NCBI GenBank assembly: GCA_934573935.1
Contig: CAKTMO010000005.1
Coordinates: 1 to 64,000, forward strand
Source: an uncultured Oscillospiraceae bacterium
Lineage (GTDB): Bacteria > Bacillota > Clostridia > Oscillospirales > Oscillospiraceae
Direction: 5' to 3'
DNA: 64,000 nt
Position numbers and translations under genes: made by a program. Positions 26,525 to 63,752 of the stretch are shown here, piece after piece. How positions within the stretch are numbered: position 1 is the first letter of the stretch; the number at the start of each line of letters is the position of its first letter. The notes beneath the pieces are model-generated. The model was not told where the DNA came from. It searched no databases and saw only the letters and a list, made by a program, of their open reading frames with translations.

Positions 26525-26572
26525 CAACGCTCCCACGGAAGGCGGCGTTCTCCCTTGCCGCCTGGAGATAGG

Positions 26573-26602
26573 AAAAAGAGACGCGAAAGCGTCTCTTTTT
26601 TC
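26573..26602 (+). terminator. Terminator of the first surface protein gene (repeat copy A)
   Basis: Hairpin aaaaagagacgc-gaaa-gcgtctctttttt, preceded by a smaller stem ggcggc...gccgcc (26541-26562). The same pair of structures occurs after the second surface gene and at 37823. Confidence 0.9.
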
Positions 26603-26648
26603 CTGCCCGCCGGAGGCGGCTCCGCCTTGAAGAATTTGAGGAAAGCCC

Positions 26649-26677
26649 TTGTGCATTCCCCGCCGGTATGGTATAAT
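26649..26677 (+). promoter_or_regulatory. Promoter of the second surface protein gene
   Basis: TTGTGC (26649-26654), 17-bp spacer, TATAAT (26672-26677), 65 bp before the start codon. Confidence 0.8.
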
Positions 26678-26741
26678 TCTGGCATGCGCACCAATTGGAT
26701 AGAAGGATAGGACAGAAAAGGAACGATAGGGAGGATATCAT

Positions 26742-32700: not shown

Positions 32701-32801
32701 CCAGCGACACCGGCGATATGGGCGTCGCCCTGTACGCTGTCACTGCGCTGCTGAGCGTCACCGGCATGGCCTGGGTGGGCAGAAAGAAGCGCGGTAACTA
32801 A
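26742..32801 (+). CDS. Giant surface protein: two beta-helices, InlB-type repeat, Cys/His repeats
   Basis: 2019 residues. Signal peptide about 1-26 (LLSALLVLCMVFSLMPVTALA). Ig-like/unknown domains (about 30-630) contain Cys pairs. Two right-handed beta-helix blocks (about 735-930 and 1160-1500) consist of repeated GGTISGN, GGGIYA and GGAVYL units. Between them is a Listeria-Bacteroides (InlB B-type) repeat ending FDGWFTEKDGGTKV and LYAHW (about 1030-1090). A second GWxxx-type repeat lies about 1545-1625, then HSFTAE/LGHxYGAWTSN/CHGGTATC modules rich in Cys and His (about 1630-1950). The tail, SSDTGDMGVALYAVTALLS then GRKKRGN, is nearly identical to that of the preceding gene. The two genes are paralogues in tandem. 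Probable wall-attached adhesin. Confidence 0.85.
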   Translation: MKKRLLSALLVLCMVFSLMPVTALAEGGSAKGGEATFTLNADSFSCADGHTGKLGSLQVTGVDISQWKSDKKITIQYEVQYRCTNSSCELYGNDDSFFSYSGKHTFTDTKVEFCHKKISESFTATIPTALTPSGTKDFSISFTLTSDKGISEIVRHDYDAASACTEWYYSTRCWECKGCESFFTREDCDDAYKTDKDMLYFSPLGHNMTHFDAKAPSCVAKGTVEYWHCERCQLKFSDADGKNELTTIETNAPLAKHTYTTNGICSVCGKKAAAGIWAGSGTTWYNTMDNALAALDSMSGNAELTINDDYNDTITLSKTCTVKVKAGVAVSAIQVNDAENCVVTVVNNGTISALTGYTGKLVLKSGNGTYGSITNSSENGTAGGLLHTDSADKFYCYKQGSTWLHPDAATDSTIENVTVAYAPLATLAITGDKVTGSDGSYALTANKDDTITLTAAAKDMDGTAASGVSYSWYNEKTPSKSLGSEAELTLENIKAGKRTIVCKATADGYSITAKLVLTAEGQKDAQSFTVKLSQDTCGVREKVLPILSVEGVQEEAAVTYYLMTGETPAPKTDTKIDANFTFEKIDNTTGERKVYAHTAETDNFASTTSDPVTITVTAHYNHCICGGTLNHTHENVEWQAWDGKSAINYEQKLVKVSEYTSHTRYVAYVYLTGNVSANLTLGSRQMLYLCLNGYSFTSADPSQPAITLKGERGYPAELYLCDCGSTGTLGGSTVSGGSIRAAEYANVTLYGGTLTGNTVSGNGGAVAVNDNCSFTMHGGTISGNEASGNGGGIYATAGSVTINGGMISNNQATNGGGIYAVSGAQFHLNGGEINGNTATNEGGGVYCSHLYSQNTGRCEFYGSTISGNSAKRGGGAYVRVCYIGYRNCRITGNTATEAGGGLYLEPYASAKIIYMGNVYGNSGPITPYIYDNTVNFAQNNLYLSDPDTQIVFTSPINTDGDAKIGVYFTGITKNGASVLLNGLQINTEARAQLYHDRIFCDNPDYGMLEIQQDDEYYNLYLRSTISAVKVTLDPNGGTLSAGEGSIFVQPDSPYGTLPTPTRASYRFDGWFTEKDGGTKVEETTTVSIRGNHTLYAHWTFQHEHCICGGDVAAGDHTAHTPQVFTAWNGTDAIAYTNRIAYVYLTQNVTINSNLVVDGTTLYLCLSGNTFASNGTNKIQVKNGGRLVLCDCAGGGTIKGATSGWGGACIYIYTSTVDIFGGKITGGKVTTSGGGGAIALDDSKCVLNIYGGEISGNNGKNSGGAIFLNNKDNKGGTVNMYGGTIANNEAQKGGVIYSECGGTINLVGGTISGNKATKGDGGVINMAGGTITLSGAKLTGNSASQYGGAVYLYEGVTATMTGGAISNNYAGSEGGAVHVYGKNSTFYLKGGTITGNRSVDGGAIYLNREPSVLTMTGGVISGNTATGNGGGVYIYRTGSVCNLSGGRIEQNTAKAGGGIYVNPSNSGQLKISGAPVVRGNTVSGAASNVYLPSGKLLTISGSMEAGASIGVTTESKNYPVAFSNAYATDYSGFFRADDAGAEVVYKTDQKLYLDARQYDIIIQGTDNGHATADSSRAAASKRITLTPAPSVGYHFMAWNVISGGITITKDASGKDGFTMPASNVIIQAVFAQHSFTAERAEDTYLKTAADCENDAVYYKSCACGEKGTEIFTKANSALGHDYGAWTSNDNGTHTRICSNDTSHTETKDCHGGTASCTAKAICEDCGAAYGEMSAHSFTAETVEETYLKSEATCTDKAVYYKSCAVCGLSSEGTAGEATFESGNSLGHNYGAWTSNNNGTHTRTCSRDASHKETDNCHGGTATCIAAAVCTDCGTAYGAKKPQNHADGCMLEWITTEETHQQKYSKCGQEVVPEEDHEWENGTCTECRYVCQHSGGTATCTEKAVCEICGESYSDPLGHDWGQWTVTTPATARAEGVETRTCRNDASHTETRAIPKLTPERGHTSRRFPAGGTTNSTGSATDTDKTVKSSDTGDMGVALYAVTALLSVTGMAWVGRKKRGN

Positions 32802-49701: not shown

Positions 49702-51153
49702 TCAGTGCCGAGAAGTCCTGCTCTTCTTCTGGAGGAAGATCAGGAGGAGCCCCGCGCCGGAAACAAGCACCGCCGCACTGTATAGCAGCAGATTCATATT
49801 GTCGCCGGTCTTCGGATCCGATCCCTTCGTTCCATCCGTGATATCCTCCACGATGAACTTCCAGTCGATCTGCGTCAGCTGATCGGCGTACGTCATGGGC
49901 GTATCCTTATCCAGCGTCAACTCCACACGGAGCTTGCCGCTCTTTTTGCCGCCGTATTCGCCCAGCAACACAACTTCTTGCAGGTCGTTGATGCTGCCCT
50001 TATAGTCCTTGCCCAGCGCCGTGCCATCGTAAATGAGCTTGTCGCCGTTATAGACCTTCATGGCGATCCGCTCCAGCAGATCGCGCGGCAGCTTGTCCTG
50101 CTTCTCCTTGGGCACCACCTGCAGATAGACCTTACAGCTCTTGTCCGTCTGATTCTCGATCACCAGCGTGTCCTCGTAGACCTCGCCGGGCATCATGTTC
50201 AGGTGGCTCATAAACCAGTTTTCTTCGGGCTTGGAGGGCGTATAGGTCAACACGCCGTTCTTCTCCTCCAGATACAGCTTCTTCAAAGCCACGCTGTCAT
50301 CGCGGCTGTAATCCGCATCGCTGCCGGAAACGGCAATAGTTTTCAGATAGCTGATAACGGATTGATCCGCCCCGCTCTCATCGCCAAACACAGCTTTCAC
50401 GGCGGAGGCCGTGGCCTGCACCGTGTTCATGGTGGCGGTCAGCGTAAAGCGGGAGCTCTGGTAATCATAGGTGGGATTTTTGGTGCTGGTGGTAACCCAC
50501 TGCTGCGCCGCCTTGTCCCACACTGTCCGTGTGGCAAGGGTGACTGCCTGGATCTGGGGATTCATGGTCACGCCATCCAAAAGGAGCGGGGTTTCCTCGC
50601 CCTTATCCAGCACGCCCATGTAATAAAACGTCAAATATCCGTCACTGTCCGGCGTCTCGCGCATCAGCAGCCATTTTCCGGCGGCATCCTTCACCTTGGA
50701 CACGGTAGGAAGGCCCAGACGGGCCGTGCTGCCCGACGCTTTGCCAAAGTCCAGAAGAACAACATTCTTGCCCCACTGCATCAGCGCGGCATAGCTTTCT
50801 CCATCCGATGTCTGAAAGGTGTTCGGGATGCTCTCGCCCTTTTTTGGGGGGACGATGTTTCCGTCGGCGTCGGTGACGTTCTCCTTGCGTACCCAGCTCT
50901 GGTGGAGCTTGATACTGGCAAACACGGGCACCGTGCCGTTGTTGCGCACCTTTACATCCTTATTCACAGAAATACCGGGCTGCCAGTCGCTGGGCGGCAC
51001 GAACTCCTCCACCAGCTCCGTCGCATATTCCCCGGTGCGGAATTCGTTGACAGCCTGCTGCGTCTGGGTGCCGTAGGCGACGGTTCCGCCCATGATCCCC
51101 AACGCCAGCAGCGCCGCCAGTGCCAGCACCCGGTACCGCTTTCGTTTCTTCAT
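49702..51153 (-). CDS. BsaA-like SipW-type matrix protein with wall-sorting tail
   Basis: 483 residues from ATG 51153 (MKKRKRYRVLALAALLALGI). SipW-type signal peptide ending GTVAYGT, then a BsaA/TasA-like fold starting with the shared stretch YATELVEEFVPPSDWQPGIS and NKDVKVRNNGTVPVF, and a second similar domain near 370-450. The C-terminus has DPKTGD, a hydrophobic segment and KKSRTSRH, a sortase-type sorting signal. It is the only one of the five paralogues with such a tail, so it probably anchors the fibre to the wall, as a base subunit. Last gene of the operon. Confidence 0.85.
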   Translation of the reverse strand: MKKRKRYRVLALAALLALGIMGGTVAYGTQTQQAVNEFRTGEYATELVEEFVPPSDWQPGISVNKDVKVRNNGTVPVFASIKLHQSWVRKENVTDADGNIVPPKKGESIPNTFQTSDGESYAALMQWGKNVVLLDFGKASGSTARLGLPTVSKVKDAAGKWLLMRETPDSDGYLTFYYMGVLDKGEETPLLLDGVTMNPQIQAVTLATRTVWDKAAQQWVTTSTKNPTYDYQSSRFTLTATMNTVQATASAVKAVFGDESGADQSVISYLKTIAVSGSDADYSRDDSVALKKLYLEEKNGVLTYTPSKPEENWFMSHLNMMPGEVYEDTLVIENQTDKSCKVYLQVVPKEKQDKLPRDLLERIAMKVYNGDKLIYDGTALGKDYKGSINDLQEVVLLGEYGGKKSGKLRVELTLDKDTPMTYADQLTQIDWKFIVEDITDGTKGSDPKTGDNMNLLLYSAAVLVSGAGLLLIFLQKKSRTSRH

Positions 51154-51182
51154 GTTCCTATTCCTCATTTGTACGCATGCGA

Positions 51183-51713
51183 TCACGTCTCGTCGGAGAG
51201 CCCTTGCAGCTTCTCCCACACCGTCTCGCCGGCGGTCTTTTTCTTTTTTTCCGGCGTCAGAAGAATATCCAGCACCAGAATAATGCCGCAGGCGCCCAAC
51301 ACATACCACTGCTGGGCATAACGCACAAAGTAACCGACATAGGGGATGGCGAACCCCGTGGTCTTACCCGCTACCCGCGAATAGGGCACGGGGTTCACAT
51401 CCTCCGTCTCATTGTGGTCACCCTTTGTGGTAAAGCTCTGCGCGGTGTCGTCCTTTGCTGTCACGCGATGGGTCGCCAGCTCGCCATCCTCCCCGATGCG
51501 GAAGGTGATAGGATCACCCACCGCGATATCTTCGTAGGCGGCACTTTTATAATAGGTCACGCTGCCCACAGGGTAGCTGGGCAGCATACTGCCTGACAGC
51601 ACCACCACGGGATGATAACCCGCCACCAGCGGCGCGATCAGCAGCAGCGTCAACGCAATGACCGTCAGCACGAGCCATGTCAATGCCCGTACCACAGCAG
51701 AAACCACTTTCAT
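51183..51713 (-). CDS. ER-type signal peptidase I (SipW-like)
   Basis: 176 residues. N-terminal membrane helix, catalytic Ser in VVVLSGSMLPSYPVGS, then ATHRVTAKD with His replacing the Lys of normal bacterial signal peptidases, and TKGDHNETEDVNPV, followed by a C-terminal membrane helix (GACGIILVLDILL). This is the S26B, SipW type that processes TasA/camelysin-like precursors. It lies among the five BsaA-like genes, its obvious substrates. Known related systems are Bacillus tapA-sipW-tasA and C. perfringens sipW/bsaA loci. Confidence 0.92.
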   Translation of the reverse strand: MKVVSAVVRALTWLVLTVIALTLLLIAPLVAGYHPVVVLSGSMLPSYPVGSVTYYKSAAYEDIAVGDPITFRIGEDGELATHRVTAKDDTAQSFTTKGDHNETEDVNPVPYSRVAGKTTGFAIPYVGYFVRYAQQWYVLGACGIILVLDILLTPEKKKKTAGETVWEKLQGLSDET

Positions 51714-53488: not shown

Positions 53489-54103
53489 TTAAGGGGTTTG
53501 ATTGCTTGCGCTCCATGTCAAGACGCCGTCAGCGGCAGCGGTAAAGGTCATGCCCCAGCCTGCCTCTGTCTCGATCTGGTTCACGTCCAGCGCTTCTATT
53601 ATCACCGTCAGCGTGTAGCGCTTGTTGGAATAATCCTGTTTGCCATCGTAACCGCCGTTGGTTAATTCGCTGCCGAATTTGATCGCGCTGATGGCGTTTT
53701 CAGTGACTACACCGGGCTGGAGTGCCTTTTTGTAGTAGTACCAGTCACCCACCTGCTGCCAGTTTTTCGTGCCAGAAAACTGGATCGTGGGCTTCTGCGT
53801 CAGAGTCAGCACAGGGGCATCGGCGATTCCGTTCAACGTGCTTTCGCTCCATGCGCTTTCGCACTTGAAACGGATCACCTGAGGCAGCTCTCCGCTGTTG
53901 CTGAAGGAGACTTGCTTCTCCTTCGTCTCACCCGGCAGCCACTTGTCCGCCGGATTGAACACCTCGCGCATGGTGACGCCGCTCTTTTTGGTGCTGATGC
54001 GGTTAACCACGGGGGACGCGGTTTTGTGATAGCCCCATGTACTGCTTACGGCACTGAGCAGCAGCACGATCACCAGAAGCAGCAGAAAATGTCTTTTTTT
54101 CAT
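53489..54103 (-). CDS. BsaA-family SipW-dependent matrix protein 2
   Basis: 204 residues from ATG 54103 (MKKRHFLLLLVIVLLLSAVS), behind aaggaggcggaagacaATG; an upstream in-frame ATG extends into the preceding gene. Signal peptide ends SSTWGYHK. The mature part has the short family core (VTMREVFNPADKWLPGETK, VSFSNSGELPQVIRFK, GDWYYYKKALQPG). More divergent than paralogues 3 and 4. 14 nt separate it from the gene before. No sorting tail. Confidence 0.82.
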   Translation of the reverse strand: MKKRHFLLLLVIVLLLSAVSSTWGYHKTASPVVNRISTKKSGVTMREVFNPADKWLPGETKEKQVSFSNSGELPQVIRFKCESAWSESTLNGIADAPVLTLTQKPTIQFSGTKNWQQVGDWYYYKKALQPGVVTENAISAIKFGSELTNGGYDGKQDYSNKRYTLTVIIEALDVNQIETEAGWGMTFTAAADGVLTWSASNQTP

Positions 54104-54117
54104 TGTCTTCCGCCTCC

Positions 54118-54732
54118 TTAGTTCGTCCACGTGACGGTGCCGTCGGTAACGGCGCCGTAGGACGTGGTCATGTCAGTCACCTCAGCGGTACGGCCGAACA
54201 GTGTCTTTGTGGCGTCGGTATTCACCGCGGCCTCATCACTGACCTGCACCGTTTCCACCTGGAAGTCCAGGTGGTACGACGCGCCAGCGGTCACGCTGGC
54301 TGGGAAGGTCACGCTTTCCAGCACTTGGACGCTTCCACCGGCCGGCAGCACCTTTTTGTAATAGTACCAGCCGTCGTCATGACGCTTAAAGTCGTTCTTC
54401 CAGTCGGTTGTCCAGTTTTGTTTCACATTGGTAGCGCCTGCCAGCTGCTCCGTAGCTGTTGTCCAGTACTCCGCATAGCTTACACGGACGAAAGCGGCGG
54501 CATTGCCTGTGTTCTGCACCGTGACTGTCTTTTTTTTGGTTGTTCCCTTTTCCACCCTGTTGCTGGGGAACTCTTCCGCTACAGCGACAGAGACGGTGCG
54601 GCTTTCCAGCTGGTTCACCTGCTGCGCGCGGTGGGTATTCCACGCCCACGCCGCGCCAAAGCCGGCAACGCCGATCAACAGCAGGGCCAGCATACCGGTC
54701 AAAGCAAACCAGGCCCGCGTTTTTGTTCTCAT
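54118..54732 (-). CDS. BsaA-family SipW-dependent matrix protein 1
   Basis: 204 residues. Signal-like N-terminus (AWFALTGMLALLLIGVAGFG), then VSVAVAEEFPSNRVEKGTTK, VQNTGNAAAFVRVSYAEYW and GWYYYKKVLPAGGSV in the family pattern. First of four tandem paralogues between the giant protein and SipW. The most divergent member; it may cap or nucleate the fibre. Ribosome binding site gagaggaggtagatcATG. Confidence 0.8.
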   Translation of the reverse strand: MRTKTRAWFALTGMLALLLIGVAGFGAAWAWNTHRAQQVNQLESRTVSVAVAEEFPSNRVEKGTTKKKTVTVQNTGNAAAFVRVSYAEYWTTATEQLAGATNVKQNWTTDWKNDFKRHDDGWYYYKKVLPAGGSVQVLESVTFPASVTAGASYHLDFQVETVQVSDEAAVNTDATKTLFGRTAEVTDMTTSYGAVTDGTVTWTN

Positions 54733-54758: not shown

Positions 54759-57700
54759 TCAAGTCGCAGGCCAAAATGTGTTGTTTTTCTGGGTGCGGCT
54801 CTTGAAGTAACCCTGGCCTGTGTACGTGTTGTGGACAATCAGGGTAACGCGGTCTCCGGCGTGCAGCGTCAGCGTGCCATCATTAGTCAGTACAGCCTTG
54901 CTGCCCTCCGGCTGCGTAAACGTCAAACTCTCCAGCTGGAACTCCATCGGCAGCACCTCGCTAAGCTTGATGGCATCGCTGCCGGTAATGGGCACCTTGA
55001 TGAAATTGGAGGTACCATCGTGCTTAAGGTTCACCTGAGCTATGGACTCACCCGTGTTCGTTCTGGTGAGGTTGATGGTAAAGGTCTGATCCTTCATGGC
55101 TTCCGTATAACCGTCGACGACCTTCTTCACCTGAACGTAGGCGTTTTCCTCTACCGTGATGACGACGCGCACGTTGTAGTGCATGTCTTTGAAGTTCAGG
55201 CCTTCGAACTCCTTCTCCAATTCAGTTTTCTTCTCTTCATCCATATCTGCCGGAAAATCAGGAAGCTTGACCGTCTCTGTTTCCTTTCCTCCGTTGTGCT
55301 CACGGTTGAACATGATGTAATAGGTACCATCCTCCGTCACACACAGGTCATAGCGCACCAGAGCCGTGGTAGAATGGGACTCCTCGCGCAATGTCTGACC
55401 ACCGCTCGCTTGTTTCACGTCTGCGGTATAGAAGTATTCAATGGGAATCCATATCTCCGCGGGATTGTCGACCGTTACCTTTTCTATCGTTTCCTTGCTG
55501 ATTGTCTTGCTACCCTGCACATATAGAGCATCCTTCATCTGGATCTCAATTCTCGTAATCTCAGCGTCTGAATTCGCCTTTTTCCACACGGCGGTGGAAG
55601 GCACCTCTACGGGGATACCTTCTTTTATAACCGAACCGCGAGTCGTACCACTACTCACAACCGTTGTTTTATCACCTTCATATGCCTCCAGATACAGAGC
55701 CGTTGTGATGGGATGGTCGTCTCCAGCCTGAGCCTCCACCGTCAGATAACGCGTGGTGGGAATGATCTCCACCAACTTACTGTCGGTCACATAGCGGCCG
55801 TCCGCCAGCTGCCAGTAGTAGCTGACCTCATACATCTGATTTTCGTCTACAAAGAAGTGGTCGTTTCCGTTCCATTTTTTCTCGTCCTTGGTAGGGTCTG
55901 CTCCAGAGATGCCGCTGGTTCCTTCACCGGTGACCTTGACGGAGCAGTTGAAGCTGTACCCGTCTCCGTCTTGCATATACGCGCCATCCTCCGTTTTTGC
56001 CACACGCCAGATCTCGGTGTTCAGGATAGCGCCGATGGAGGCGGAGAAGTTGGTTTTCAGATGATTTTCGTGGTCGGTGGGTACGCCATAGTAGTAGGGG
56101 CTGAGCGGTGACTTGCCTGTCGCCTTCTCAGTAGGATAGCCAGCGCGCTTGGCTGTTGACCAGTACTTGGTGTCATCCCATCCCAGCACGCGGTTTTCCT
56201 CAATGCTGTCCATCATGGTCAGGGTGACGCCATTCCTGTGGTTGTAATATGCGCCGGATTCTACGGCATTTTCACCTGTGCGGTCATCGCCTGCGTCGAT
56301 GCTCATGTAGCCGGTCAGGCGCAGGGGGCGGCTGGCTGTCTCGTTACCGACTTGTTCAGAGACGGAGAACCAGTTCATGCCGGGGCCCTCCACCGTGCCG
56401 TTGGTGCCCTTGATGACGATGTTCTTTGTGGTGGCGCTCTGGGACGTACCGCCCACCACCTCCAGCCGGGTCTTCGCACCGCCGGTGATCAGTTCCTTCC
56501 ATGTTCCGGTGGTGTTGGTGACGGTGAAGGGAGAAATGATCTCGCGGACGGTGTCGTAGGTGTATTTGTCCGCCCTATGGGATGTTCCATCGGGCTCACG
56601 ATTATAGTCGACTTTCTCCGCCGAGCGGACACCCTTTTCGTCCCAATCGTAGCCCTTCTCCCAGGTGTTCAAAAACACCGTGGCGGTGGAGGCTTTGGAC
56701 ACAGCCTCCACCAGCTGCGCCATTTCCATGCCGCCCCAAGCCGTCGAATTATTCGTCGCTCCGGAGAATACCTGCAGCTGGGGGTAGTGCTCTGGCGAAT
56801 AACTCCAAACGCCCTCACTCTGCGGCCCCAGGCCGAAATTCTGTCCGCTGGCCATGCCGACAGAATTGCCTCCATTTGCGGCCTTGTTTTTATCCGATGT
56901 CTTGGTCAGCAGACCGGTGATGTTCTCATTCGTCTTCCAGCCCCAGAGGGCGTTTTCACGCATGGCGGTGGTCTGCTTGTCGTAGTAGCAGTTGGTATAG
57001 CTGCCCGAAGCGTCTAAGCCTTCCGAACGGCTGTTTGCGTAGGAGCCGAAGCCGCCCACGTTTTTCTTGTCGGCATCTTCCTCGGAAAGTTCTACCTTCT
57101 CCAACGGAGTGGTATGACTGCCCACCTCACCAGCGGCATAGCAGTCCTTAAAATTGCCATGAACACCAGTGGCAAAGCCCGCCATATTCCGCGCCTCGGT
57201 ACGCAAGCCCACCAGCATGGTGCTGTAGCTCTTTGTCACATTCCGTACGTCGGGCACTTCTCTTGAGTTTGCCACATCAGGATTTCTGTACCCTCCGCCA
57301 AGGCCGGAAAGATCCTTATATCCTTCCATTTTTCCCGTGGTATAGCACTGATCCACGGCAGAAGCTCCGCCGAGGCCATAGATATCCCGCGCGCCATACA
57401 TCTCTGCGGAGATGAAACACTTCTCAACCCTTGTCTTATTGGTAGAGCACGGCAGCAAGCCGCCGGAGTGTCCTCCCGTACCGACCAGCATACAGCCGAT
57501 GGAGGCGCAGTTCTCCATCTTGCCGTTATAAACACATAAGAATCCCAGCGACACATGGTTTTTTCCGAACATATAATTGTTTATGAAATACACCCGTTTT
57601 GCCGAGAAGCTTTTATACAACCCTTCGCTATCCAATGGGGACGTACCAGGCTGTCCCATAATTGAAGAACCCCAGATCAAGAAACGATTATATCTTGTCT

Positions 57701-60164
57701 TACCGTCCGTCCCCTTCCACTTATAATTGTTGTATACGCCGGAGTAGTTCAGACACCTCTCAAAAGTGAGGTCGGTCATGGTTAGGTTCACTGTGCCTGG
57801 TTCATATTGTTTACTTTCGCTCTGTAACCGCTGGAACAACCCACCGTAGGAACACATCGGCTGAACGATCTTTGCGGTGACAAAGTTCAGATTTTGGATC
57901 GTACAGGCGCTGTTCGTACCAGTTCGATTCAAGAAAACCGGACGCTTCACAGTATCCTTTTTTTGATCGTCTGTCGTTTTGTCCGAGGAATCATACACAT
58001 TGCCATAGTTATAAATGGTAAACCCCGCGCCATCAATGATCGTGTTATTACTACTGTTTGTAACACCGGGCCAGCTGTGATGCATACCATTCAGGTCAAT
58101 GTTGTCGCCCAGTCGGACGACCTGATTATCTTTGTAGTGCTGCAGTGCGTAAAGCAGCTGCTCACCGGAATAGACTATCCAAACGACTTCTTTTATCGTT
58201 TTTCCATCTTTTTCATATATGGTGGTTTCGACGGGGCTCCGTTTGGGATTGGTTGTTACATCACCCGTAGTCTCATCGGCGACCATACCGCTCCAAGCCC
58301 AACCTTCTCTTTCCCGAGCATGAAATTCAATGCTGCTGTTGGGCGTCCAGGAAAACTGCTGCATAACCTTATTCTGCCAGATGGTGCACACATAGTCGCG
58401 CCATACGCCAGAAATGCCATATTCATAGAAATCTGTAGTTTTCCCTCCAAGGGTATTCTTGATATAGTCGACCACTTCGGGGTCACTATCGTCTGCGGCT
58501 GCGTTGCCGCTGGTAGGGGCATATTGTCTCATCAATGCATCGCCCCGATCATCCTCCGTTCCGCCATTGCCGTTAACGGACATCAGAGAAAAGCCGCCCA
58601 TGCCCGCCTGTTCGCTGCCCTCAATGATGGAGATGCAGCCTAAAGCGGGGTACATGGCGGCGGTGGATTCCTGTTGCTGGGCAGCATTTTCTGCGCCCTC
58701 CCGGGTGGCGTCCTCCTGTTCAGGATCGCGCGCCACAGTATAGATATCTCTGTCGGAAGCTCCGTGGGTATTCTGATACGCCACCAGCCGCTCCGCGTCC
58801 TCCACCGACATGACGGACTCCTCGCCGGTGTTCAGCTTGATGATACGGACGGTGTCCTTGCCGTACAGGGGGCAAGTCACGTTCTCCGGATCGTGAACAT
58901 GGGAAAAGTCACCAGGCACATATTCCGTATGGGTGCCCAGGTATGTGTTGCTGTCAGGGTCATAGTCCTCCATCTCAACCGCCACCTGCTCGCGGCACAT
59001 GCACTCAATGGGGCTGAAATACTTGCAGTCCGCCTGATGGGCCCAGGGATAGTTATCGGCGGCGATGGGTTCGCCATCCAGACCGCAGTGGCAGTCCGTC
59101 AGCGGCAGCACATAGCAGGGGCAGTCCTCCGCGTGCTGCTCGCTGGGCTCGTTGGTCGCCAGACCACAGGTACACAGCAGCGCCGCCTGATAGAAGGGGC
59201 AGCTTGCGTCGTGGTCGGAGGAGACAACATCTTCGCCCACCGCGCAGGTGCAGTGGATCTCTTTGGAGACGTAGCAGGGGCAATCCTCCGCGTGGATGAC
59301 GGCGCCGTCCTCTCTGGGCTGGGCGCCGCAGGTGCAGACAGGCTCGGACGCGGTATAGCAGGGGCAGTCCTCTGCGTGGACGGTAACACCGTTCTCGTCG
59401 GGCTGGGCACCACAGGTGCAGGCAGGCTCCGGCGCGGTGTAACAGGGGCAGTCCTCCGCGTGGAGGGTGACGCCGTTCTCGTCGGGCTGGGCACCGCAGG
59501 TGCAGACGGGCTCGTCGCTGTGGTCGTCATCAGGACTGTCGCTCTGTAACACACAGACGGTGGCCGTGGGGGCGCTGCCGCTCCAGTGATAGGAGGACTC
59601 GCCGGAAACACGGGCGGTGAATGTGTACGTGCCGGCGGTCTCGCCGTCGTAGCTGCCGCTCCACTCCACGGGGATATCCAGCACCGCGCCGGTGATGTTG
59701 CCAGCCTCATCGCAGGCAAACCAGAGATTCTCGCTGCCCTCGATAGAGCCGTAGAGACGGTAGGCCAGGTCGCCGTTGGCGTAGTAGATGGTATAGATGG
59801 CCTTTTCGCCCGCTTCCACCAACGCGTCGGCGCCCTTGGGCGCCACGTAGCCGTACCAGTAGTAGTCGAAGCTCTCCGAGCCGTCGCTGGTATCGGCCTC
59901 CGGCGCTGCCTGGAGGAAGGTGGAGACATCCATCTCCTCCGGAATGCCTACGATAGCGCGGAGGGTATCGGGCAGGTGCAGCGCGTCCCGCGCCGTTCCC
60001 AGCTCCACCGTCTCGTCATAGACGGGGTCGGTTCTCTCGAAAGAGTGGATCTGATTCGACCACTGGTGCTCCGCCAAACCGGGCACGGCAAGCGCCAGCA
60101 GCAGTACCACCGCCAGCACCACACATATCAGGCGATACGATGGTGCGGTCTTTTTTCGTATCAT
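54759..60164 (-). CDS. Giant secreted Cys/His-repeat protein of the matrix operon
   Basis: 1801 residues. Signal peptide about 1-32 (LICVVLAVVLLLALAVPGLA). About residues 220-430 hold roughly seven tandem units of about 28 residues with the pattern CxCG...HAEDCPCY, i.e. CxC, His and Cys with spacing that suits zinc or other metal binding. A central part (about 690-1150) has beta-helix/GLUG-like turns (NLGG, GGLFQRL, GGFGSYANS). The C-terminal part (about 1640-1790) has a Cna-B/DUF5979-like domain (VQVKKVVDGYTEAMKD to VTLIVHNTYTG). No sorting signal. Probably a secreted adhesin or fibre-linked matrix protein, and the longest gene in the operon. Confidence 0.82.
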   Translation of the reverse strand: MIRKKTAPSYRLICVVLAVVLLLALAVPGLAEHQWSNQIHSFERTDPVYDETVELGTARDALHLPDTLRAIVGIPEEMDVSTFLQAAPEADTSDGSESFDYYWYGYVAPKGADALVEAGEKAIYTIYYANGDLAYRLYGSIEGSENLWFACDEAGNITGAVLDIPVEWSGSYDGETAGTYTFTARVSGESSYHWSGSAPTATVCVLQSDSPDDDHSDEPVCTCGAQPDENGVTLHAEDCPCYTAPEPACTCGAQPDENGVTVHAEDCPCYTASEPVCTCGAQPREDGAVIHAEDCPCYVSKEIHCTCAVGEDVVSSDHDASCPFYQAALLCTCGLATNEPSEQHAEDCPCYVLPLTDCHCGLDGEPIAADNYPWAHQADCKYFSPIECMCREQVAVEMEDYDPDSNTYLGTHTEYVPGDFSHVHDPENVTCPLYGKDTVRIIKLNTGEESVMSVEDAERLVAYQNTHGASDRDIYTVARDPEQEDATREGAENAAQQQESTAAMYPALGCISIIEGSEQAGMGGFSLMSVNGNGGTEDDRGDALMRQYAPTSGNAAADDSDPEVVDYIKNTLGGKTTDFYEYGISGVWRDYVCTIWQNKVMQQFSWTPNSSIEFHAREREGWAWSGMVADETTGDVTTNPKRSPVETTIYEKDGKTIKEVVWIVYSGEQLLYALQHYKDNQVVRLGDNIDLNGMHHSWPGVTNSSNNTIIDGAGFTIYNYGNVYDSSDKTTDDQKKDTVKRPVFLNRTGTNSACTIQNLNFVTAKIVQPMCSYGGLFQRLQSESKQYEPGTVNLTMTDLTFERCLNYSGVYNNYKWKGTDGKTRYNRFLIWGSSIMGQPGTSPLDSEGLYKSFSAKRVYFINNYMFGKNHVSLGFLCVYNGKMENCASIGCMLVGTGGHSGGLLPCSTNKTRVEKCFISAEMYGARDIYGLGGASAVDQCYTTGKMEGYKDLSGLGGGYRNPDVANSREVPDVRNVTKSYSTMLVGLRTEARNMAGFATGVHGNFKDCYAAGEVGSHTTPLEKVELSEEDADKKNVGGFGSYANSRSEGLDASGSYTNCYYDKQTTAMRENALWGWKTNENITGLLTKTSDKNKAANGGNSVGMASGQNFGLGPQSEGVWSYSPEHYPQLQVFSGATNNSTAWGGMEMAQLVEAVSKASTATVFLNTWEKGYDWDEKGVRSAEKVDYNREPDGTSHRADKYTYDTVREIISPFTVTNTTGTWKELITGGAKTRLEVVGGTSQSATTKNIVIKGTNGTVEGPGMNWFSVSEQVGNETASRPLRLTGYMSIDAGDDRTGENAVESGAYYNHRNGVTLTMMDSIEENRVLGWDDTKYWSTAKRAGYPTEKATGKSPLSPYYYGVPTDHENHLKTNFSASIGAILNTEIWRVAKTEDGAYMQDGDGYSFNCSVKVTGEGTSGISGADPTKDEKKWNGNDHFFVDENQMYEVSYYWQLADGRYVTDSKLVEIIPTTRYLTVEAQAGDDHPITTALYLEAYEGDKTTVVSSGTTRGSVIKEGIPVEVPSTAVWKKANSDAEITRIEIQMKDALYVQGSKTISKETIEKVTVDNPAEIWIPIEYFYTADVKQASGGQTLREESHSTTALVRYDLCVTEDGTYYIMFNREHNGGKETETVKLPDFPADMDEEKKTELEKEFEGLNFKDMHYNVRVVITVEENAYVQVKKVVDGYTEAMKDQTFTINLTRTNTGESIAQVNLKHDGTSNFIKVPITGSDAIKLSEVLPMEFQLESLTFTQPEGSKAVLTNDGTLTLHAGDRVTLIVHNTYTGQGYFKSRTQKNNTFWPAT

Positions 60165-60214: not shown

Positions 60215-61159
60215 TCAGCCCTGACTGCTCAGTATTTCGACCAGAGGCGCGGCGTCCACCGCTCCCCAGCCGTAGTCTGTATCATAGCCCGCCGCGCCTT
60301 TATCGACGGCGGTGGTTTTCAGCAACTCCATAAAGCCCTCGCCTGTCAGATAGGGCTGGTACTGTTTGGCGATGGCCGCCAGCGCTGTTACCTGCGCCGC
60401 CGCATAGCTGGCGCCCGCGCCGCCGTGAACGTAGCCGCCGTTGACGCCCAGACTCACCAGTTCTTCCCCGGGCGCGGTGACAAACACGCTGCCGTTTCGG
60501 GCGGCAGTCTCCGGCAGTTCGCCCGCCGCGTTCAGGGCGTCCACGCCCACCACGGCATCATAAGCGGCAGGATAGACCGGCGTTTCGCTGTCGCCGCCGG
60601 CGGAGGCCACCAATATGGCGCCCTGTTGAGCCGCATAATCCACCGCCTCGCGCAGCTGCGCACTGTCGTTGGGCGTTCCCATGGAGAGGTTGATCACGCC
60701 GCAGCCGTATACATCTACCGCGTCACGGATCGCCTGCGCCAGCGCGGTAACGCTGGCCTGTCCGCTGGTGCTCCATACCTTAAGGACAACCAGGTCGCTG
60801 TCTGTCATTCCGGCAATGCCTTTGCCGTTGCCCCGCGACGCCGCCAGAAGGCCCGCGATAAACGTGCCGTGTCCCACCTTGTCGGTGAGGTCGCTCTCGT
60901 CCTCATCCACGTAGCTCTTTCCGGTGATGCGTCTGCTGTTCAGATCGGGATGCTCCGCCACGCCGGTGTCGATCAGGGCGATCTTTACGCCCTTGCCGGT
61001 CATACCAACTGACCAGGCGGATTCGATATGCAGCTCAGCCAGATTTGTCTGAGAGGGGTATAAGGGGTCGTCAGGCGGCAAACCACCGCCTCCGCAGGCG
61101 CTCAGCGTCAGCAGCATAGCCAGCAGCCATGCGAGCGCACCGATATGTTTCTTTCTCAT
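60215..61159 (-). CDS. Subtilisin-like (S8) serine protease lipoprotein with altered oxyanion site
   Basis: 314 residues. Lipobox LSAC (Cys22), then an S8 catalytic domain starting almost at once: Asp in ALIDTG, His in VGHGTFIAG, Ser in GGAGASYAAAQ. The usual oxyanion Asn (AAGN) is aligned with a Gly in VASAGGDSE, so the enzyme may be weak, specialised, or use another residue. There is no prodomain of usual length. Being lipid-anchored outside and in the matrix operon, it may mature or remodel the giant protein or the fibre. It is co-transcribed with signal peptidase genes. Confidence 0.85.
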   Translation of the reverse strand: MRKKHIGALAWLLAMLLTLSACGGGGLPPDDPLYPSQTNLAELHIESAWSVGMTGKGVKIALIDTGVAEHPDLNSRRITGKSYVDEDESDLTDKVGHGTFIAGLLAASRGNGKGIAGMTDSDLVVLKVWSTSGQASVTALAQAIRDAVDVYGCGVINLSMGTPNDSAQLREAVDYAAQQGAILVASAGGDSETPVYPAAYDAVVGVDALNAAGELPETAARNGSVFVTAPGEELVSLGVNGGYVHGGAGASYAAAQVTALAAIAKQYQPYLTGEGFMELLKTTAVDKGAAGYDTDYGWGAVDAAPLVEILSSQG

Positions 61160-61167
61160 TGCACTAT

Positions 61168-61725
61168 TCAGCCCTCAATACGCAGCAGGGCGATAATTTT
61201 CCCGCACAATTGCTCTTTCCGCACCGCGCCGAAATTACGGGAGTCCACGCTGTTCTCGCGGGAATCCCCCAGGACAAAATATTCGTCCTCTCCCAGCGTC
61301 AGCGGCAGGCTGCAGCCCGTCTTGCGAAAGGTGTCGCCGCGGGCATAGTCATCCACCGCCGGTGCGCCGTCTATCAGCAGGCGGTGGGTCTTCTGATTGT
61401 CGATGTCCACCGTCTGTCCGGGGAGCGCCGCCACCCGCTTGATATAGCTGCCATCCGTCCGCACCAGTACGATGTCGCCAACGGCATAGTGGGAACGGAG
61501 GCGAAAAAACAGCACGATATCCCCGCTGAACAACGCAGGCTCCATGGATTCGCCTTTGACAAAGCCTACGCCGCACACCACACCGAACAGGAGGTACGCC
61601 GCCGCAGCGGTCAGCACGATCCGCAGGATCGCGGCACGGGCGGCCTTTTTGCGGCGGATCGCCTCCAACCGCAGTTCCAGCAGCTTGTCCAGCAGTATGT
61701 CAGCGGCGTTATTCTGCGGTTCCAT
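61168..61725 (-). CDS. Bacterial-type signal peptidase I
   Basis: 185 residues. An N-terminal cytosolic arm, one membrane helix (VLTAAAAYLLFGVVCG), catalytic Ser in VKGESMEPAL and catalytic Lys in YIKRVAALPG, and box E LGDSRENSVDSRNFG. This is the ordinary Ser-Lys enzyme, in contrast to the ER-type SipW homologue of the same operon. The start ATG lies inside the end of the coiled-coil gene (17-nt overlap). It may serve the giant protein, whose signal peptide is conventional. The operon thus has two signal peptidases of different type. Confidence 0.9.
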   Translation of the reverse strand: MEPQNNAADILLDKLLELRLEAIRRKKAARAAILRIVLTAAAAYLLFGVVCGVGFVKGESMEPALFSGDIVLFFRLRSHYAVGDIVLVRTDGSYIKRVAALPGQTVDIDNQKTHRLLIDGAPAVDDYARGDTFRKTGCSLPLTLGEDEYFVLGDSRENSVDSRNFGAVRKEQLCGKIIALLRIEG

Positions 61726-62488
61726 TCTCGTTGGCGCACAGGCTCATAAGCTGGTTCTTCATCTGCTGCGCCTGCGTCAGCAGGGTATCCAGCGTCAGCG
61801 ACAGAGAGTGGGAATCCTCCTCCAGCATTTTTTGCAGCTGGTTGTTCTTCTGCTCTATAATGAACGACTCCGCCTGGATGCGATTCGCGTCCTTGATGGC
61901 CTGTTCCTTGTAGTGGGCGAGGATATCCGACTTGGCCAGTTCGATAGAGGCCAGCAGAACACGAAGCTTCTCCGCATCGCTGTCCTGTCCGAAGAGCGGC
62001 TCCTCCTGCGCAGGCTCGGCACACACTGCGGCGTGCGCTGCAGCCTCCGGCTGTACCGCGGTGCGCTGTGAGCGCAGTTCTTCCAGCTCCGTCTCAAGGT
62101 GCTGCTTTTCCTCCTCTGTCTGGCAAAGCAGCTTTGTTTTCTCTGCCAGCTCCTCTTCCGTCTGGCAAAGCTGCTTTGTTTTCTCTGCCAGCTCCTCTTC
62201 CGTCTGGCAAAGCTGCTTCGTCTTTTCCGCCAGTTCTTCCTCCGTCTGGCGAAGCTTTTCCTCCTGGGTCGAGAGCGCATGTTCCATCTCCTGGCACCGC
62301 TGCTTTTCCTCGTTTAAGGCGGCTTCCGCCTGTGCGCGGTACTCCTCCAGTTGACCGCCGCTCCCCTCGCTGCGGGCAAGCTTCGCTACCTCAGTCATTT
62401 TCAAAATAACGTCTTCCGGATCATATCCACCGAAAGACTTTGTCTTGATCTTCATGGATTTGAGATAGGACTCCAGATTCTGCTCCAT
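61709..62488 (-). CDS. Coiled-coil cytoplasmic protein (DivIVA-like N-terminus)
   Basis: 259 residues without signal peptide. A short N-terminal domain (SFGGYDPEDVILKMTEVAKLAR) resembles the DivIVA-type anchor. Then a long coiled coil follows (about 50-140) including three tandem 14-residue units (QTEEELAEKTKQLC), a hinge (about 143-168) and a second helix rich in Gln (about 170-255). First gene of the operon, directly after the invertible segment, so it is the first product of any switched promoter. A scaffolding or placement role is suggested by its shape only. Ribosome binding site gaaaggggaactgagcATG. Confidence 0.75.
   Translation of the reverse strand: MEQNLESYLKSMKIKTKSFGGYDPEDVILKMTEVAKLARSEGSGGQLEEYRAQAEAALNEEKQRCQEMEHALSTQEEKLRQTEEELAEKTKQLCQTEEELAEKTKQLCQTEEELAEKTKLLCQTEEEKQHLETELEELRSQRTAVQPEAAAHAAVCAEPAQEEPLFGQDSDAEKLRVLLASIELAKSDILAHYKEQAIKDANRIQAESFIIEQKNNQLQKMLEEDSHSLSLTLDTLLTQAQQMKNQLMSLCANENGTAE
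62118..62243. repeat. Three tandem 42-bp repeats in the coiled-coil gene
   Basis: Units at 62118-62159, 62160-62201 and 62202-62243, each starting gtctggcaaag. The first two differ in very few bases, the third in more. Each codes 14 residues, so copy-number change would lengthen the coil without a frameshift. Confidence 0.85.
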
Positions 62489-62548
62489 GCTCAGTTCCCC
62501 TTTCTGTCAATGATCTTGGCCGCGTACCTCTATTTTGCAAGAAAACAA

Positions 62549-62609
62549 CCGCCGGACTTTCATTCCACTACATAATTTGCATTATGTGGTATGAAAGTAG
62601 CGGCGGTCT
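62549..62609. other. Long hairpin around the left inverted repeat
   Basis: Outer arms ccgccgg-actttcat (62549-62563) and atgaaag-tagcggcgg (62591-62607) extend the repeat into a stem of about 28 bp. On minus the stem is followed by ttgttttcttg, like an intrinsic terminator; on plus by ctggcttgctttttttac. One outer arm lies inside the invertible segment and the other outside. Confidence 0.7.
62565..62592 (+). repeat. Left inverted repeat (IR-L) of the putative switch
   Basis: 28 bp: ccactacataat-ttgc-attatgtggtat. It matches the complement of IR-R at 25 of 28 positions, with 23 in a row (62570-62592). The centre ttgc is the complement of gcaa in IR-R, which fixes the orientation as inverted. 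Confidence 0.88.
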
Positions 62610-62736
62610 GGCTTGCTTTTTTTACGATTTATTTTTGACAGATCTTTTTCGCTGCGGGTAACCTCGATAAGCCGGATACACCTATCGCGTAGGAGGATCC
62701 GGCTCGTTTCGCATGCGCTGGATATGTAAAATGATC

Positions 62737-62765
62737 ATTATATGGCCTAATAAAGTGTTTGTTAT
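62737..62765 (-). promoter_or_regulatory. Leftward promoter P1 in the switch segment
   Basis: On minus: ATAACA (62765-62760), 17-bp spacer, TATAAT (62742-62737). It faces the matrix operon as read here but must pass the long hairpin at 62549-62609. Confidence 0.55.
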
Positions 62766-62787
62766 TTAATTAACAGGTCAATATATA

Positions 62788-62816
62788 TTGACTTTCTGCG
62801 CTTTTTGTCGTAACAT
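62788..62816 (+). promoter_or_regulatory. Rightward promoter P2 in the switch segment
   Basis: TTGACT (62788-62793), 17-bp spacer, TAACAT (62811-62816). As read here it faces IR-R with its T7 run and then the antisense strand of the recombinase. After inversion it would face the matrix operon. Confidence 0.6.
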
Positions 62817-62857
62817 AAGACTACTATGCGAAAAGGAAACTTTTGGCTTTGGCAGGA

Positions 62858-62885
62858 ATACCACATAATGCAAATTATGTGGTAT
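62858..62885 (-). repeat. Right inverted repeat (IR-R) of the putative switch
   Basis: 28-bp perfect dyad: ataccacataat-gcaa-attatgtggtat. T residues continue to 62891, so on plus it also forms an AT-rich intrinsic terminator. Confidence 0.88.
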
Positions 62886-62900
62886 TTTTTTGTATGCCCT

Positions 62901-63752
62901 CTATACGACGAGGCCTAACCGCTCCACCTTGCTGGCATATTCGTTGCGGCTGACGGCGGTATAGATGCGGGTGGTATTGATGCTGCTGTGGCCGAGAATA
63001 TCTGCCAGACGGACGATATCTTTTTCAAGGCCATAAAACGTTCTGGCAAACAGATGACGCAAGTTGTGGGGGAAGATCTTGCTTTCCGCCACACCGGCCT
63101 CCCGCCCCAACCGCTTCATAGCGTGCCAAATGTTGGATCTGTCCAGGGGCTTGCCCGACGCCGTGCGGAAAAGATAACCCTTTTGAATGCCGCAGCTCCC
63201 GGCGTAACGCGCCAGCGCGCTGCACAGCTTTTTGGGCAGGATCACGGTGCGCCGCTTTCCCTTACAGGTGATCTCCGCCCTGCGCGCACGCACCGCCTCC
63301 ACCGTGATATAGGGCAGCTCCGACACGCGGATGCCCGTTGCGCAGATCGTCTCCATCACCAGACACAGCCGCTGGTTGTGCTTGCGGCGGGCGGCGTGCA
63401 GCAGGCGGAAATATTCCTCCTTTGTCAATTCACGGCTGTCATCCATAAAGGGCTGGCGCTGGCATCTTACAAGCTTCACGCGGCACTCATCGCACCCCGC
63501 GAAGCGTAGAAAACCGTTCACCGCCGCAAGGATGGAGTTCACACTGCTGACGCGATGCTTTTTCTGCAGCCGCTGCTTATAGGCGATAACCTCCTGCTTG
63601 CTGACCTGCTGGCTGTGGTTTTCCTCTAAAAACGCCAGAAACTGCCGCACATCCCGCAGGTATTTTCCAACGGTATGTACGCTTCGCTCCTGCTCGACAA
63701 GCCAATCCTGATAGCGCGGCAAAACGCCGGCAAGCTCTTTTCTCTGGATCAT
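62901..63752 (-). CDS. Tyrosine recombinase (XerD-like), putative DNA invertase
   Basis: 283 residues. N-terminal SAM-like core-binding domain (about 5-90: YQDWLVEQERSVHTVGKYLRDV) and catalytic domain (about 105-280) with the complete set: Arg in ATGIRVSELP, Lys in TCKGKRR, HNLRH, GHSSINTTRIYT with the nucleophile Tyr at the end (RIYT). Length is like XerC/XerD and small invertases. Start has ggggaggactctcagATG. Ends 16 bp from IR-R, and is therefore the likely enzyme acting on the repeats. It is on the same strand as the matrix operon. Ends in TAG. Confidence 0.92.
   Translation of the reverse strand: MIQRKELAGVLPRYQDWLVEQERSVHTVGKYLRDVRQFLAFLEENHSQQVSKQEVIAYKQRLQKKHRVSSVNSILAAVNGFLRFAGCDECRVKLVRCQRQPFMDDSRELTKEEYFRLLHAARRKHNQRLCLVMETICATGIRVSELPYITVEAVRARRAEITCKGKRRTVILPKKLCSALARYAGSCGIQKGYLFRTASGKPLDRSNIWHAMKRLGREAGVAESKIFPHNLRHLFARTFYGLEKDIVRLADILGHSSINTTRIYTAVSRNEYASKVERLGLVV

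What the first reader, a model, noticed from the sequence alone, without database searches (positions are those of the whole stretch)
62488..63752. Putative invertible promoter switch controlling a ten-gene matrix operon
A 265-bp segment lies between 28-bp inverted repeats (62565-62592 and 62858-62885; 25 of 28 match, 23 consecutive). It carries sigma-A-like promoters on both strands and sits between the first gene of the matrix operon and a tyrosine recombinase with all catalytic residues. This is the layout of phase-variable loci in Bacteroides and C. difficile, where tyrosine recombinases invert short promoter segments. I know of no such switch described for a SipW/BsaA matrix locus.
Basis: partly seen in the sequence, partly recalled or inferred. 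Interest (0 to 1): 0.92.

Follow-up and report, generated by a model that had tools for sequence, protein, structure and literature searches.

The report
Invertible promoter switch for biofilm-matrix operon
A short DNA segment in front of a set of biofilm-matrix genes looks built to be flipped by the enzyme encoded next to it, so that each cell turns those genes on or off; flipped copies occur in related bacteria, but flipping of this very copy has not been seen.

Summary
The 265-bp segment 62593-62857 lies between inverted repeats, each itself a palindrome (ACATAAT-TTGC-ATTATGT), the form of a tyrosine-recombinase crossover site. The XerD-like recombinase gene ends 20 nt from the nearer core.

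Relatives support a working switch. Of 112 recombinase loci with enough flank (window included), 78 carry such a site pair directly 3' of the gene; 0 of 127 upstream controls do. The 4-nt centres match in inverted reading in 77 of 78 pairs (1.9 expected). A promoter near one repeat faces the recombinase in 49 loci, the operon in 10 (about 3.5 each by chance); 19 are undecided. In three locus pairs the inner segment is inverted while the recombinase stays collinear.

The window is best read as OFF. A U-tailed hairpin spanning the operon-side repeat would be lost on inversion.

SipW-type genes lie downstream in 11 of 77 related inverton loci, so the window is one case of a pattern. The kind of switch is known and probably matches a published Clostridia inverton-invertase pair. 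My searches found no paper on it controlling SipW/BsaA genes. Inversion at this exact locus remains unobserved.

The parts
62901..63752 (-). XerD-like tyrosine recombinase, 283 aa, presumed invertase of the adjacent segment; transcribed toward the segment
   Evidence: PF00589/PF02899; R142, K164/K166, H229, R232, H255, Y264; these columns are invariant in 76 of 76 aligned members, window included (whose own numbering is one too high); relatives of solved Xer recombinases 4a8e, 5hxy, 1a0p
62858..62885 (.). Recombinase-side inverted repeat; core crossover site 62863-62880
   Evidence: core begins 20 nt after the recombinase stop
62565..62592 (.). Operon-side inverted repeat; core crossover site 62570-62587
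62593..62857 (.). Invertible segment, 265 bp, 40% G+C in a 59.5% G+C window
   Evidence: repeats; G+C; related segments found in both orientations
62788..62816 (+). Sigma-A-like promoter TTGACT-17-TAACAT; its -10 ends 46 nt from the recombinase-side core, the family's canonical position; faces away from the operon now (OFF) and would face it after inversion
   Evidence: score 10.5 at this end, 7.1 at the operon end; 99th percentile of shuffles 10.56
62737..62765 (-). Second promoter-like match ATAACA-17-TATAAT pointing at the operon now; not at the canonical position (149 nt from the arm core), role doubtful
62538..62608 (-). Orientation-dependent hairpin (stem 62547-62608) with U-rich tail in the operon leader; built from 62593-62608 inside the segment, the repeat, and 62547-62566 outside it
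   Evidence: dG -36.8, z -6.9; 101-nt leader z -6.3 now and -1.3 after in-silico inversion
61709..62488 (-). Operon gene 1: coiled-coil-like protein, 259 aa, with three 14-aa tandem repeats
61168..61725 (-). Operon gene 2: signal peptidase I (S26)
   Evidence: PF10502, TIGR02227 above cut-off
60215..61159 (-). Operon gene 3: subtilisin-like protease, mycosin-like
   Evidence: PF00082; TIGR03921 below cut-off
54759..60164 (-). Operon gene 4: 1801-aa protein with an N-terminal hydrophobic, signal-peptide-like stretch
   Evidence: sequence only, by eye; not scanned against family libraries
54118..54732 (-). Operon gene 5: BsaA-like (48.4 bits, under the TIGR04090 cut-off of 60)
53489..54130 (-). 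Operon gene 6: BsaA family matrix protein
   Evidence: TIGR04090, 61.5 bits
52551..53423 (-). Operon gene 7: BsaA family matrix protein with SipW-type signal peptide
   Evidence: TIGR04090 189.3 bits, TIGR04088 30.6 bits
51723..52544 (-). Operon gene 8: BsaA family matrix protein
   Evidence: TIGR04090, 168.7 bits
51183..51713 (-). Operon gene 9: SipW-like signal peptidase
   Evidence: TIGR02228 above cut-off; NF046067 86.7 bits, under its cut-off of 190
49702..51309 (-). Operon gene 10: BsaA family protein (the true start is probably an internal ATG)
   Evidence: TIGR04090, 197.7 bits

Best explanation
The locus is a phase-variation switch. The recombinase of 62901-63752 acts on the two inverted core sites and inverts the 265-bp segment. 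Their asymmetric 4-nt centres (TTGC against GCAA) favour inversion over deletion. The segment's main promoter is + 62788-62816. In the orientation read here it points at the recombinase gene, and the operon is OFF or low. After inversion it would sit about 46 nt from the operon-side core and drive the ten-gene SipW/BsaA operon (ON). In the OFF orientation the operon-side repeat also lies in a long hairpin with a U-rich tail on the operon strand, probably a terminator against read-through from the recombinase gene or from the minus-strand promoter; inversion removes half of its stem. Shown here by sequence: sites, recombinase, promoter position, predicted hairpin, and both orientations in related loci. 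Inferred: inversion at this locus, that this recombinase does it, and that the operon is one transcript governed by it.
For: (1) 78 of 112 unique loci with at least 430 nt of 3' sequence (window included) have two core-like sites 120-450 nt apart directly 3' of the recombinase, median 17.5 nt after the stop; 0 of 127 upstream controls. A stricter repeat search that required matching arms gave 58 of 112 against 1 of 128 upstream. (2) With the centres left free in the search, the 4-nt centres agree in inverted reading in 77 of 78 pairs, in direct reading in 0; 1.9 expected after shuffling partners; 52 different centres. (3) A promoter of score 10.5 or more lies 20-60 nt from one arm in 58 of 78, against 1.3% per end in mononucleotide shuffles; 49 OFF, 10 ON, 19 undecided, where shuffled segments give 3.5 OFF and 3.7 ON per 78; 43 OFF and 7 ON calls exceed the 99th percentile of shuffles. 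(4) L038 and L065: recombinase 81% and upstream flank 92% identical and collinear, inner segment alignable only when flipped (87% over 193 nt). L109 against L111 and L113, three loci of one genome: recombinases collinear at 82-83%, segments flipped. (5) Contigs end within 400 nt 3' of the recombinase in 19 of 98 loci, against 5 of 98 on the 5' side (p 0.007) and 1.7 expected; L011, L040, L059 and L124 end 0-6 nt after a core (L011 is not among the 98), as expected if both orientations were in the sample. (6) Recombinase identity and arm identity co-vary: Mantel r 0.449, 0 of 2000 permutations as high; shared ancestry alone could give part of this. (7) Window: canonical-position promoter score 10.5 at the recombinase end, 7.1 at the operon end; hairpin z -6.3 now, -1.3 inverted.
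Against: No read, strain or same-species genome could be examined (no whole genome held; recombinase relatives reach at most 57% identity, apart from a 52-residue piece at 69%). The window promoter has a poor -10 (TAACAT) and a score just under the 99th percentile of shuffles. A minus-strand promoter with a perfect TATAAT faces the operon already, so the OFF reading is not certain. About a third of the 10 ON calls could be chance (3.7 expected); L039, L080 and L139 are the weak ones. 34 of 112 loci lack a site pair by the motif used, though at least three of them (L002, L004, L026) have an inverted-repeat pair with other arm sequences. Of 30 alignable segment pairs 26 have the same orientation and only 4 are flipped, one of them (L112/L133) weakly. 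The orientation-dependent hairpin is only weakly general in the family (p 0.05; 8 of 49 OFF loci at p<=0.05 against 2.5 expected and 4 of 49 when flipped).
Confidence: 0.86

Rival explanations
1. The segment inverts, but control works mainly by an orientation-dependent terminator, as modelled for cwpV in C. difficile: transcription starts outside or at the minus-strand promoter 62765-62737 and is stopped by the hairpin 62547-62608 in the present orientation; inversion removes the hairpin. The segment's own promoter matters little. (This shares the inversion step with the best explanation; its odds overlap with it.)
For: Hairpin z -6.9 with U-rich tail, lost on in-silico inversion; 0 of 154 mismatched segment ends fold as well with this flank; minus-strand promoter with perfect -10; cwpV precedent (PMC2784873, passages seen).
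Against: Promoters at the canonical position are common in the family (58 of 78), whereas the hairpin difference is not general.
Confidence: 0.2
2. The repeats are two bidirectional intrinsic terminators or structural palindromes between the recombinase gene and the operon; the DNA does not invert.
For: Each arm is a palindrome and the recombinase-side one is followed by a T run on the + strand.
Against: Terminators need no matching centres in inverted reading (77 of 78); flipped relatives; recombinase-arm co-variation.
Confidence: 0.04
3. A once-active switch that is now fixed in this species (degraded promoter, locked orientation).
For: Weak -10 of the canonical promoter; 3 mismatches between the two repeats read as 28-mers.
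Against: Recombinase open and with all catalytic residues; core sites without mismatch, centres identical.
Confidence: 0.09
4. The recombinase is the integrase of a mobile element and the repeats are its attachment ends or a MITE.
For: The few names given for related proteins are of the integrase/recombinase kind.
Against: Gene and site pair stay together across distant loci with differing downstream genes; no ORF-sized cargo between the repeats; no relative found in viral contigs and no exact arm there.
Confidence: 0.02

Closest known systems
Inverton group 139 with invertase group 35 (hCom2 gut community; PMC11892184, sections 7 and 8 read, other passages seen)
   Same: Tyrosine-type recombinase/integrase within 5 kb of the inverton, 32 of 33 invertons in Clostridia; recombinase enriched in the orientation that the inverton cannot drive; two named examples have repeats 231 and 241 bp apart; read-level orientation shifts reported (Clostridium sp. 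D5, Intestinimonas butyriciproducens)
   Different: The main-text passages give no repeat motif and the supplements could not be read, so identity with the ACATAAT-N4-ATTATGT class is unproven; 'SipW' and 'biofilm matrix' occur 0 times in the main text (BsaA not searched there)
cwpV switch of Clostridioides difficile, recombinase RecV (PMC2784873, passages seen)
   Same: 21-bp inverted repeats around 195 bp, site-specific recombinase, terminator hairpin predicted only in the OFF orientation
   Different: There the promoter lies outside the segment and the target is one cell-wall protein; here a promoter lies inside and the recombinase gene is adjacent
fimS/FimB-FimE of E. coli (mentioned in PMC2784873 passages; otherwise recalled)
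   Same: Tyrosine recombinase inverts a promoter-bearing segment in front of a surface-fibre operon
   Different: Two recombinases, different host, sites and fibre system (recalled)
sipW-bsaA operon of Clostridium perfringens (PMC7395162, passages seen)
   Same: SipW peptidase and BsaA matrix fibres with bimodal ON/OFF expression
   Different: [quoted passage not shown] 'inversion' occurs 0 times in the main text

Membership tests
Tyrosine-recombinase promoter inverton (fim-like kind) | Inverted repeats with recombinase core-site form flanking a short segment | tested here: met
Tyrosine-recombinase promoter inverton (fim-like kind) | Adjacent tyrosine recombinase with complete catalytic residues | tested here: met
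Tyrosine-recombinase promoter inverton (fim-like kind) | Promoter inside the segment near one repeat, facing outward | tested here: met
   window score 10.5, 46 nt from the core; one of 58 of 78 loci at or above 10.5. Consensus match only, no transcript data
Tyrosine-recombinase promoter inverton (fim-like kind) | Both orientations observed | tested here: inconclusive
   Met in relatives; no same-species DNA or reads for the window
Inverton group 139 / invertase group 35 | Same repeat motif | not testable with these tools
Inverton group 139 / invertase group 35 | Tyrosine-type recombinase within 5 kb, Clostridia host | tested here: inconclusive
   Recombinase adjacent: met. Host unnamed; titled relatives are mostly Clostridia/Oscillospiraceae MAGs
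cwpV-type terminator switch | Terminator forms only in the OFF orientation | tested here: met
   Predicted only: (z -6.3 against -1.3)
cwpV-type terminator switch | Promoter outside the inverting segment | tested here: inconclusive
   The consensus scan lists no minus-strand promoter between the segment and the operon, nor upstream of the segment to 64000; the recombinase gene must have one, which the scan missed or which lies beyond the window
SipW/BsaA matrix operon | SipW-like signal peptidase with BsaA family proteins in one operon | tested here: met
   TIGR04090 above cut-off in 4 of 5 proteins, TIGR02228 above cut-off; the SipW model NF046067 is below its cut-off. Operon inferred from gene spacing

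The most novel reading that the evidence does not exclude
A widespread recombinase-linked inverton class of Oscillospiraceae-related gut bacteria repeatedly captures SipW/TasA/BsaA-type fibre operons, so that protein-matrix production is genetically bistable by DNA inversion rather than by regulators. In this locus the switch is double-locked: inversion turns the promoter round and also dismantles a terminator assembled from sequence inside and outside the segment.
Probability: 0.4. Interest if true: 0.74.

Novelty: new member of a known kind. Interest (0 to 1): 0.64.

Why it matters
Matrix production is reported to be heterogeneous through regulators in C. perfringens (PMC7395162, passages seen; for Bacillus recalled). 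Here the same class of fibre operon appears to be placed under a heritable DNA switch, and that placement recurs in related bacteria (11 of 77 related inverton loci have SipW-type genes downstream). It predicts clonal sub-populations with and without protein matrix and can be tested directly by orientation PCR or by counting reads. The family-wide signature (fixed arms, free but paired centre, promoter 20-60 nt from one arm) also lets such switches, and often their ON/OFF state, be read from assemblies alone.

Tried and rejected
Bidirectional terminators only, and mobile-element ends: set aside on the paired-centre test and the flipped relatives. The idea that an OFF-state composite terminator is a general family feature: tested with own against mismatched flanks; only a weak excess (8 of 49 OFF loci at p<=0.05), so kept for this locus alone. 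Finding the same species: the recombinase scan of genome contigs gave only distant relatives; the coiled-coil gene was absent from 300 genomes of the family of G294, though without a positive control; a neighbouring aminotransferase gene gave no organism names among the 120 proteins listed. Viral contigs: no relative and no exact arm. BsaA family rows (TIGR04090; 48 rows in 27 of 295 genomes) compared by eye with the 98 recombinase rows: the only shared contig has them about 184 kb apart, though contig breaks could hide pairs; the association is with SipW-type operons more broadly. L010 has one core site and a SipW operon, but no good second site in the 16.8-kb locus (the only other match has 2 mismatches and another centre). 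Loci L141-L155 were fetched but entered no count.

Dropped before counts: of 140 fetched loci, L031 gave no recombinase hit; with the window this left 140 entries, of which 5 were duplicates and 23 had under 430 nt of 3' sequence, leaving 112. The residue numbers printed are one too high; one search gives the right ones.
Full report
WHAT IS THERE. On the minus strand the order is: recombinase gene (63752-62901), repeat (62885-62858), 265-bp segment, repeat (62592-62565), then ten closely spaced ORFs from 62488 to 49702. The repeats are confirmed. Each is a palindrome with core ACATAAT-TTGC-ATTATGT, and exact cores occur nowhere else in the window. The recombinase is a full-length XerD-like protein with R142, K164/K166, H229, R232, H255 and Y264; these columns are invariant in 76 of 76 aligned members, window included. 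The ten ORFs encode a coiled-coil-like protein, signal peptidase I, a subtilisin-like protease, an 1801-aa protein with a signal-peptide-like start, five BsaA-like proteins and a SipW-like peptidase. Four of the five BsaA-like proteins exceed the family cut-off.

IS IT A RECOMBINATION SYSTEM? I collected relatives of the recombinase from named contigs (31 loci), from the genomes behind 19 of those loci (11 further loci fetched) and from 295 genomes of one order (75 of 295 genomes have a match, 98 rows). All 98 rows were fetched. After removing L031 (no recombinase hit) and 5 duplicates, 135 entries remained including the window; 112 had at least 430 nt 3' of the gene. I looked for two core-like palindromes 120-450 nt apart without requiring that their centres agree. 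78 of 112 had such a pair, and 0 of 127 upstream control stretches did; a stricter repeat search gave 58 of 112 against 1 of 128. The median position is 17.5 nt after the stop codon and the median spacing 261 nt. In 77 of 78 pairs the 4-nt centres are identical when the second site is read inverted (the exception is L069); 0 agree in direct reading; shuffled partners give 1.9. The centres themselves are free: 52 different ones. Fixed arms with a free but paired centre is what tyrosine recombinases require of their crossover region (established knowledge). The arms, without the centre, co-vary with the recombinase (Mantel r 0.449; 0 of 2000 permutations; 76 loci), to which shared ancestry may contribute.

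DOES IT FLIP? Three lines, all from relatives. First, orientation: where one strand has a promoter above threshold, it lies 20-60 nt from the arm it faces in 42 of 48 segments pointing at the recombinase and 7 of 10 pointing at the operon; the best match on the opposite strand lies there in only 9 of 58. Scoring only that position (score 10 or more, 1 above the other end), 49 loci (window included) are OFF, 10 ON and 19 undecided. Shuffled segments give 3.5 OFF and 3.7 ON per 78, and 43 OFF and 7 ON calls exceed the 99th percentile of shuffles, so some ON calls may be chance. Second, direct inversions: L038 and L065 are collinear in recombinase (81%) and upstream flank (92%), yet their inner segments align only when one is reversed (87% over 193 nt; same-orientation score near chance); L109 is reversed against L111 and L113, loci of the same genome with recombinases 82-83% identical. 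Beyond the segment the downstream DNA of these pairs is not alignable. Of 30 pairs of alignable segments 26 had the same orientation and 4 were flipped; the fourth, L112/L133, is weak and its flanks were not examined. Third, assembly: contigs stop within 400 nt 3' of the recombinase in 19 of 98 loci, against 5 on the 5' side (p 0.007) and 1.7 expected by uniform placement; L011 (not among the 98), L040, L059 and L124 stop 0-6 nt after a core. Mixed orientations in the sequenced population explain that well. None of this shows flipping at the window locus itself, for which no reads or same-species DNA were available.

THE WINDOW'S STATE. The promoter at the conserved position is + 62788-62816 (TTGACT-17-TAACAT, 46 nt from the recombinase-side core; score 10.5 against 7.1 at the operon end). 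It faces away from the operon: OFF. The score is just under the 99th percentile of shuffles (10.56). The minus-strand match 62765-62737 (ATAACA-17-TATAAT) faces the operon but lies 149 nt from the arm core, where family promoters usually do not lie. Promoter-like matches as such are no more frequent than chance in this region, so the argument rests on position. The operon leader now contains a 62-nt hairpin with U-rich tail (dG -36.8, z -6.9). Its stem uses 16 nt from inside the segment and 20 nt from outside, so inversion removes it (z -1.3). None of 154 mismatched segment ends folds as well with this flank. This resembles the published model for cwpV (PMC2784873, passages seen). In the family it is a minority feature.

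WHAT THE SWITCH FAMILY CONTROLS. Of 76 mechanically chosen first downstream ORFs (77 inverton loci other than the window; L109 had none), scanned over at most 400 aa, 5 match the SipW peptidase model and 2 the SipW-dependent signal peptide. Others match DUF4379 (8), Band 7 (6), BspA-type LRR (4) and ResIII/helicase (4). Searching all ORFs of the loci, SipW peptidases or SipW-dependent-type proteins lie downstream and co-directional in 11 of 77: L009, L015, L039, L052, L054, L070, L078, L081, L086, L089, L133 (L009, L039 and L133 supplied queries themselves and were identified). The flanks held differ in length, so this is a lower bound. Eight of the 11 are among the 98 rows; six of these eight also appear in the listed rows of the SipW search (a capped list). 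About 0.08 would be expected within 5 kb on the same strand from the 203 SipW matches in those genomes, taking an assumed mean genome of 2.15 Mb. L039, with SipW as first gene, is scored ON, but weakly (10.4). The window is therefore one case of a recurrent pairing, although none of the 48 BsaA-family rows lies near a recombinase row.

WHAT IS KNOWN. A 2025 study of a defined gut community reports inverton group 139 (33 invertons, 32 in Clostridia), linked most significantly to invertase group 35, a tyrosine-type recombinase/integrase family, with orientation changes in reads (PMC11892184; sections 7 and 8 read, other passages seen). Layout and size fit; the motif could not be compared. In C. 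perfringens the sipW-bsaA operon is bimodal through a two-component system and PilA2 (PMC7395162, passages seen). My searches found no paper joining SipW, TasA or camelysin with inversion: 'SipW + phase variation + inversion' gave one listing, a small-RNA review, not opened; 'TasA + inverton' none; 'sipW + phase variable' one review in which 'phase variable' occurs only in a reference title; 'invertible + camelysin' one listing, a Bacillus genome paper, not opened. BsaA with inversion was not searched as such. The library holds open-licence papers only, so absence there is weak evidence.

VERDICT. A real, probably working, promoter inverton of a known kind with a target class for which my searches found no report. 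Most likely OFF in this assembly. Confidence 0.86 for recombinase-driven inversion controlling the operon; the double-lock detail is less certain.

Noticed in passing
window 62109-62256: Operon gene 1 carries a 42-nt tandem repeat in three in-frame copies; most near-identical metagenome homologues (245 aa) are 14 aa shorter, and the two of them that I read (P0122, P0129) lack one copy, so its length varies between strains.
   Followed up: partly
P0003 and P0152: A recombinase relative (62%) and a gene-1 relative (44%) are both listed with 7 contigs and a longest contig of 13885 bases, which suggests the same recombinase plus gene-1 locus in a second species.
   Followed up: no
L008, L022, L059, L124, 3' of the recombinase near contig ends: Two copies of the same core site in the same orientation lie 39-94 nt apart; tandem switch segments or assembly artefacts.
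   Followed up: no
L010:8856-9935: A single core site, a helix-turn-helix regulator-like ORF (by eye) and then a SipW operon directly after the recombinase; no good second site found.
   Followed up: partly
Loci such as L016, L063, L088, L140 (helicase-like starts, by eye) and others: The same switch family sits in front of helicase/restriction-like genes (4 of 76) and DUF4379 zinc-finger proteins (8 of 76), which hints at phase-variable defence systems (tallies).
   Followed up: no
L028:1187-1606: An 86-nt perfect inverted repeat 3' of the recombinase contains a tRNA-3'-end-like sequence (by eye).
   Followed up: no
window 21683-32801 (+): Two very large proteins (1613 and 2019 aa) with signal-peptide-like starts (by eye) are encoded elsewhere in the window.
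   Followed up: no
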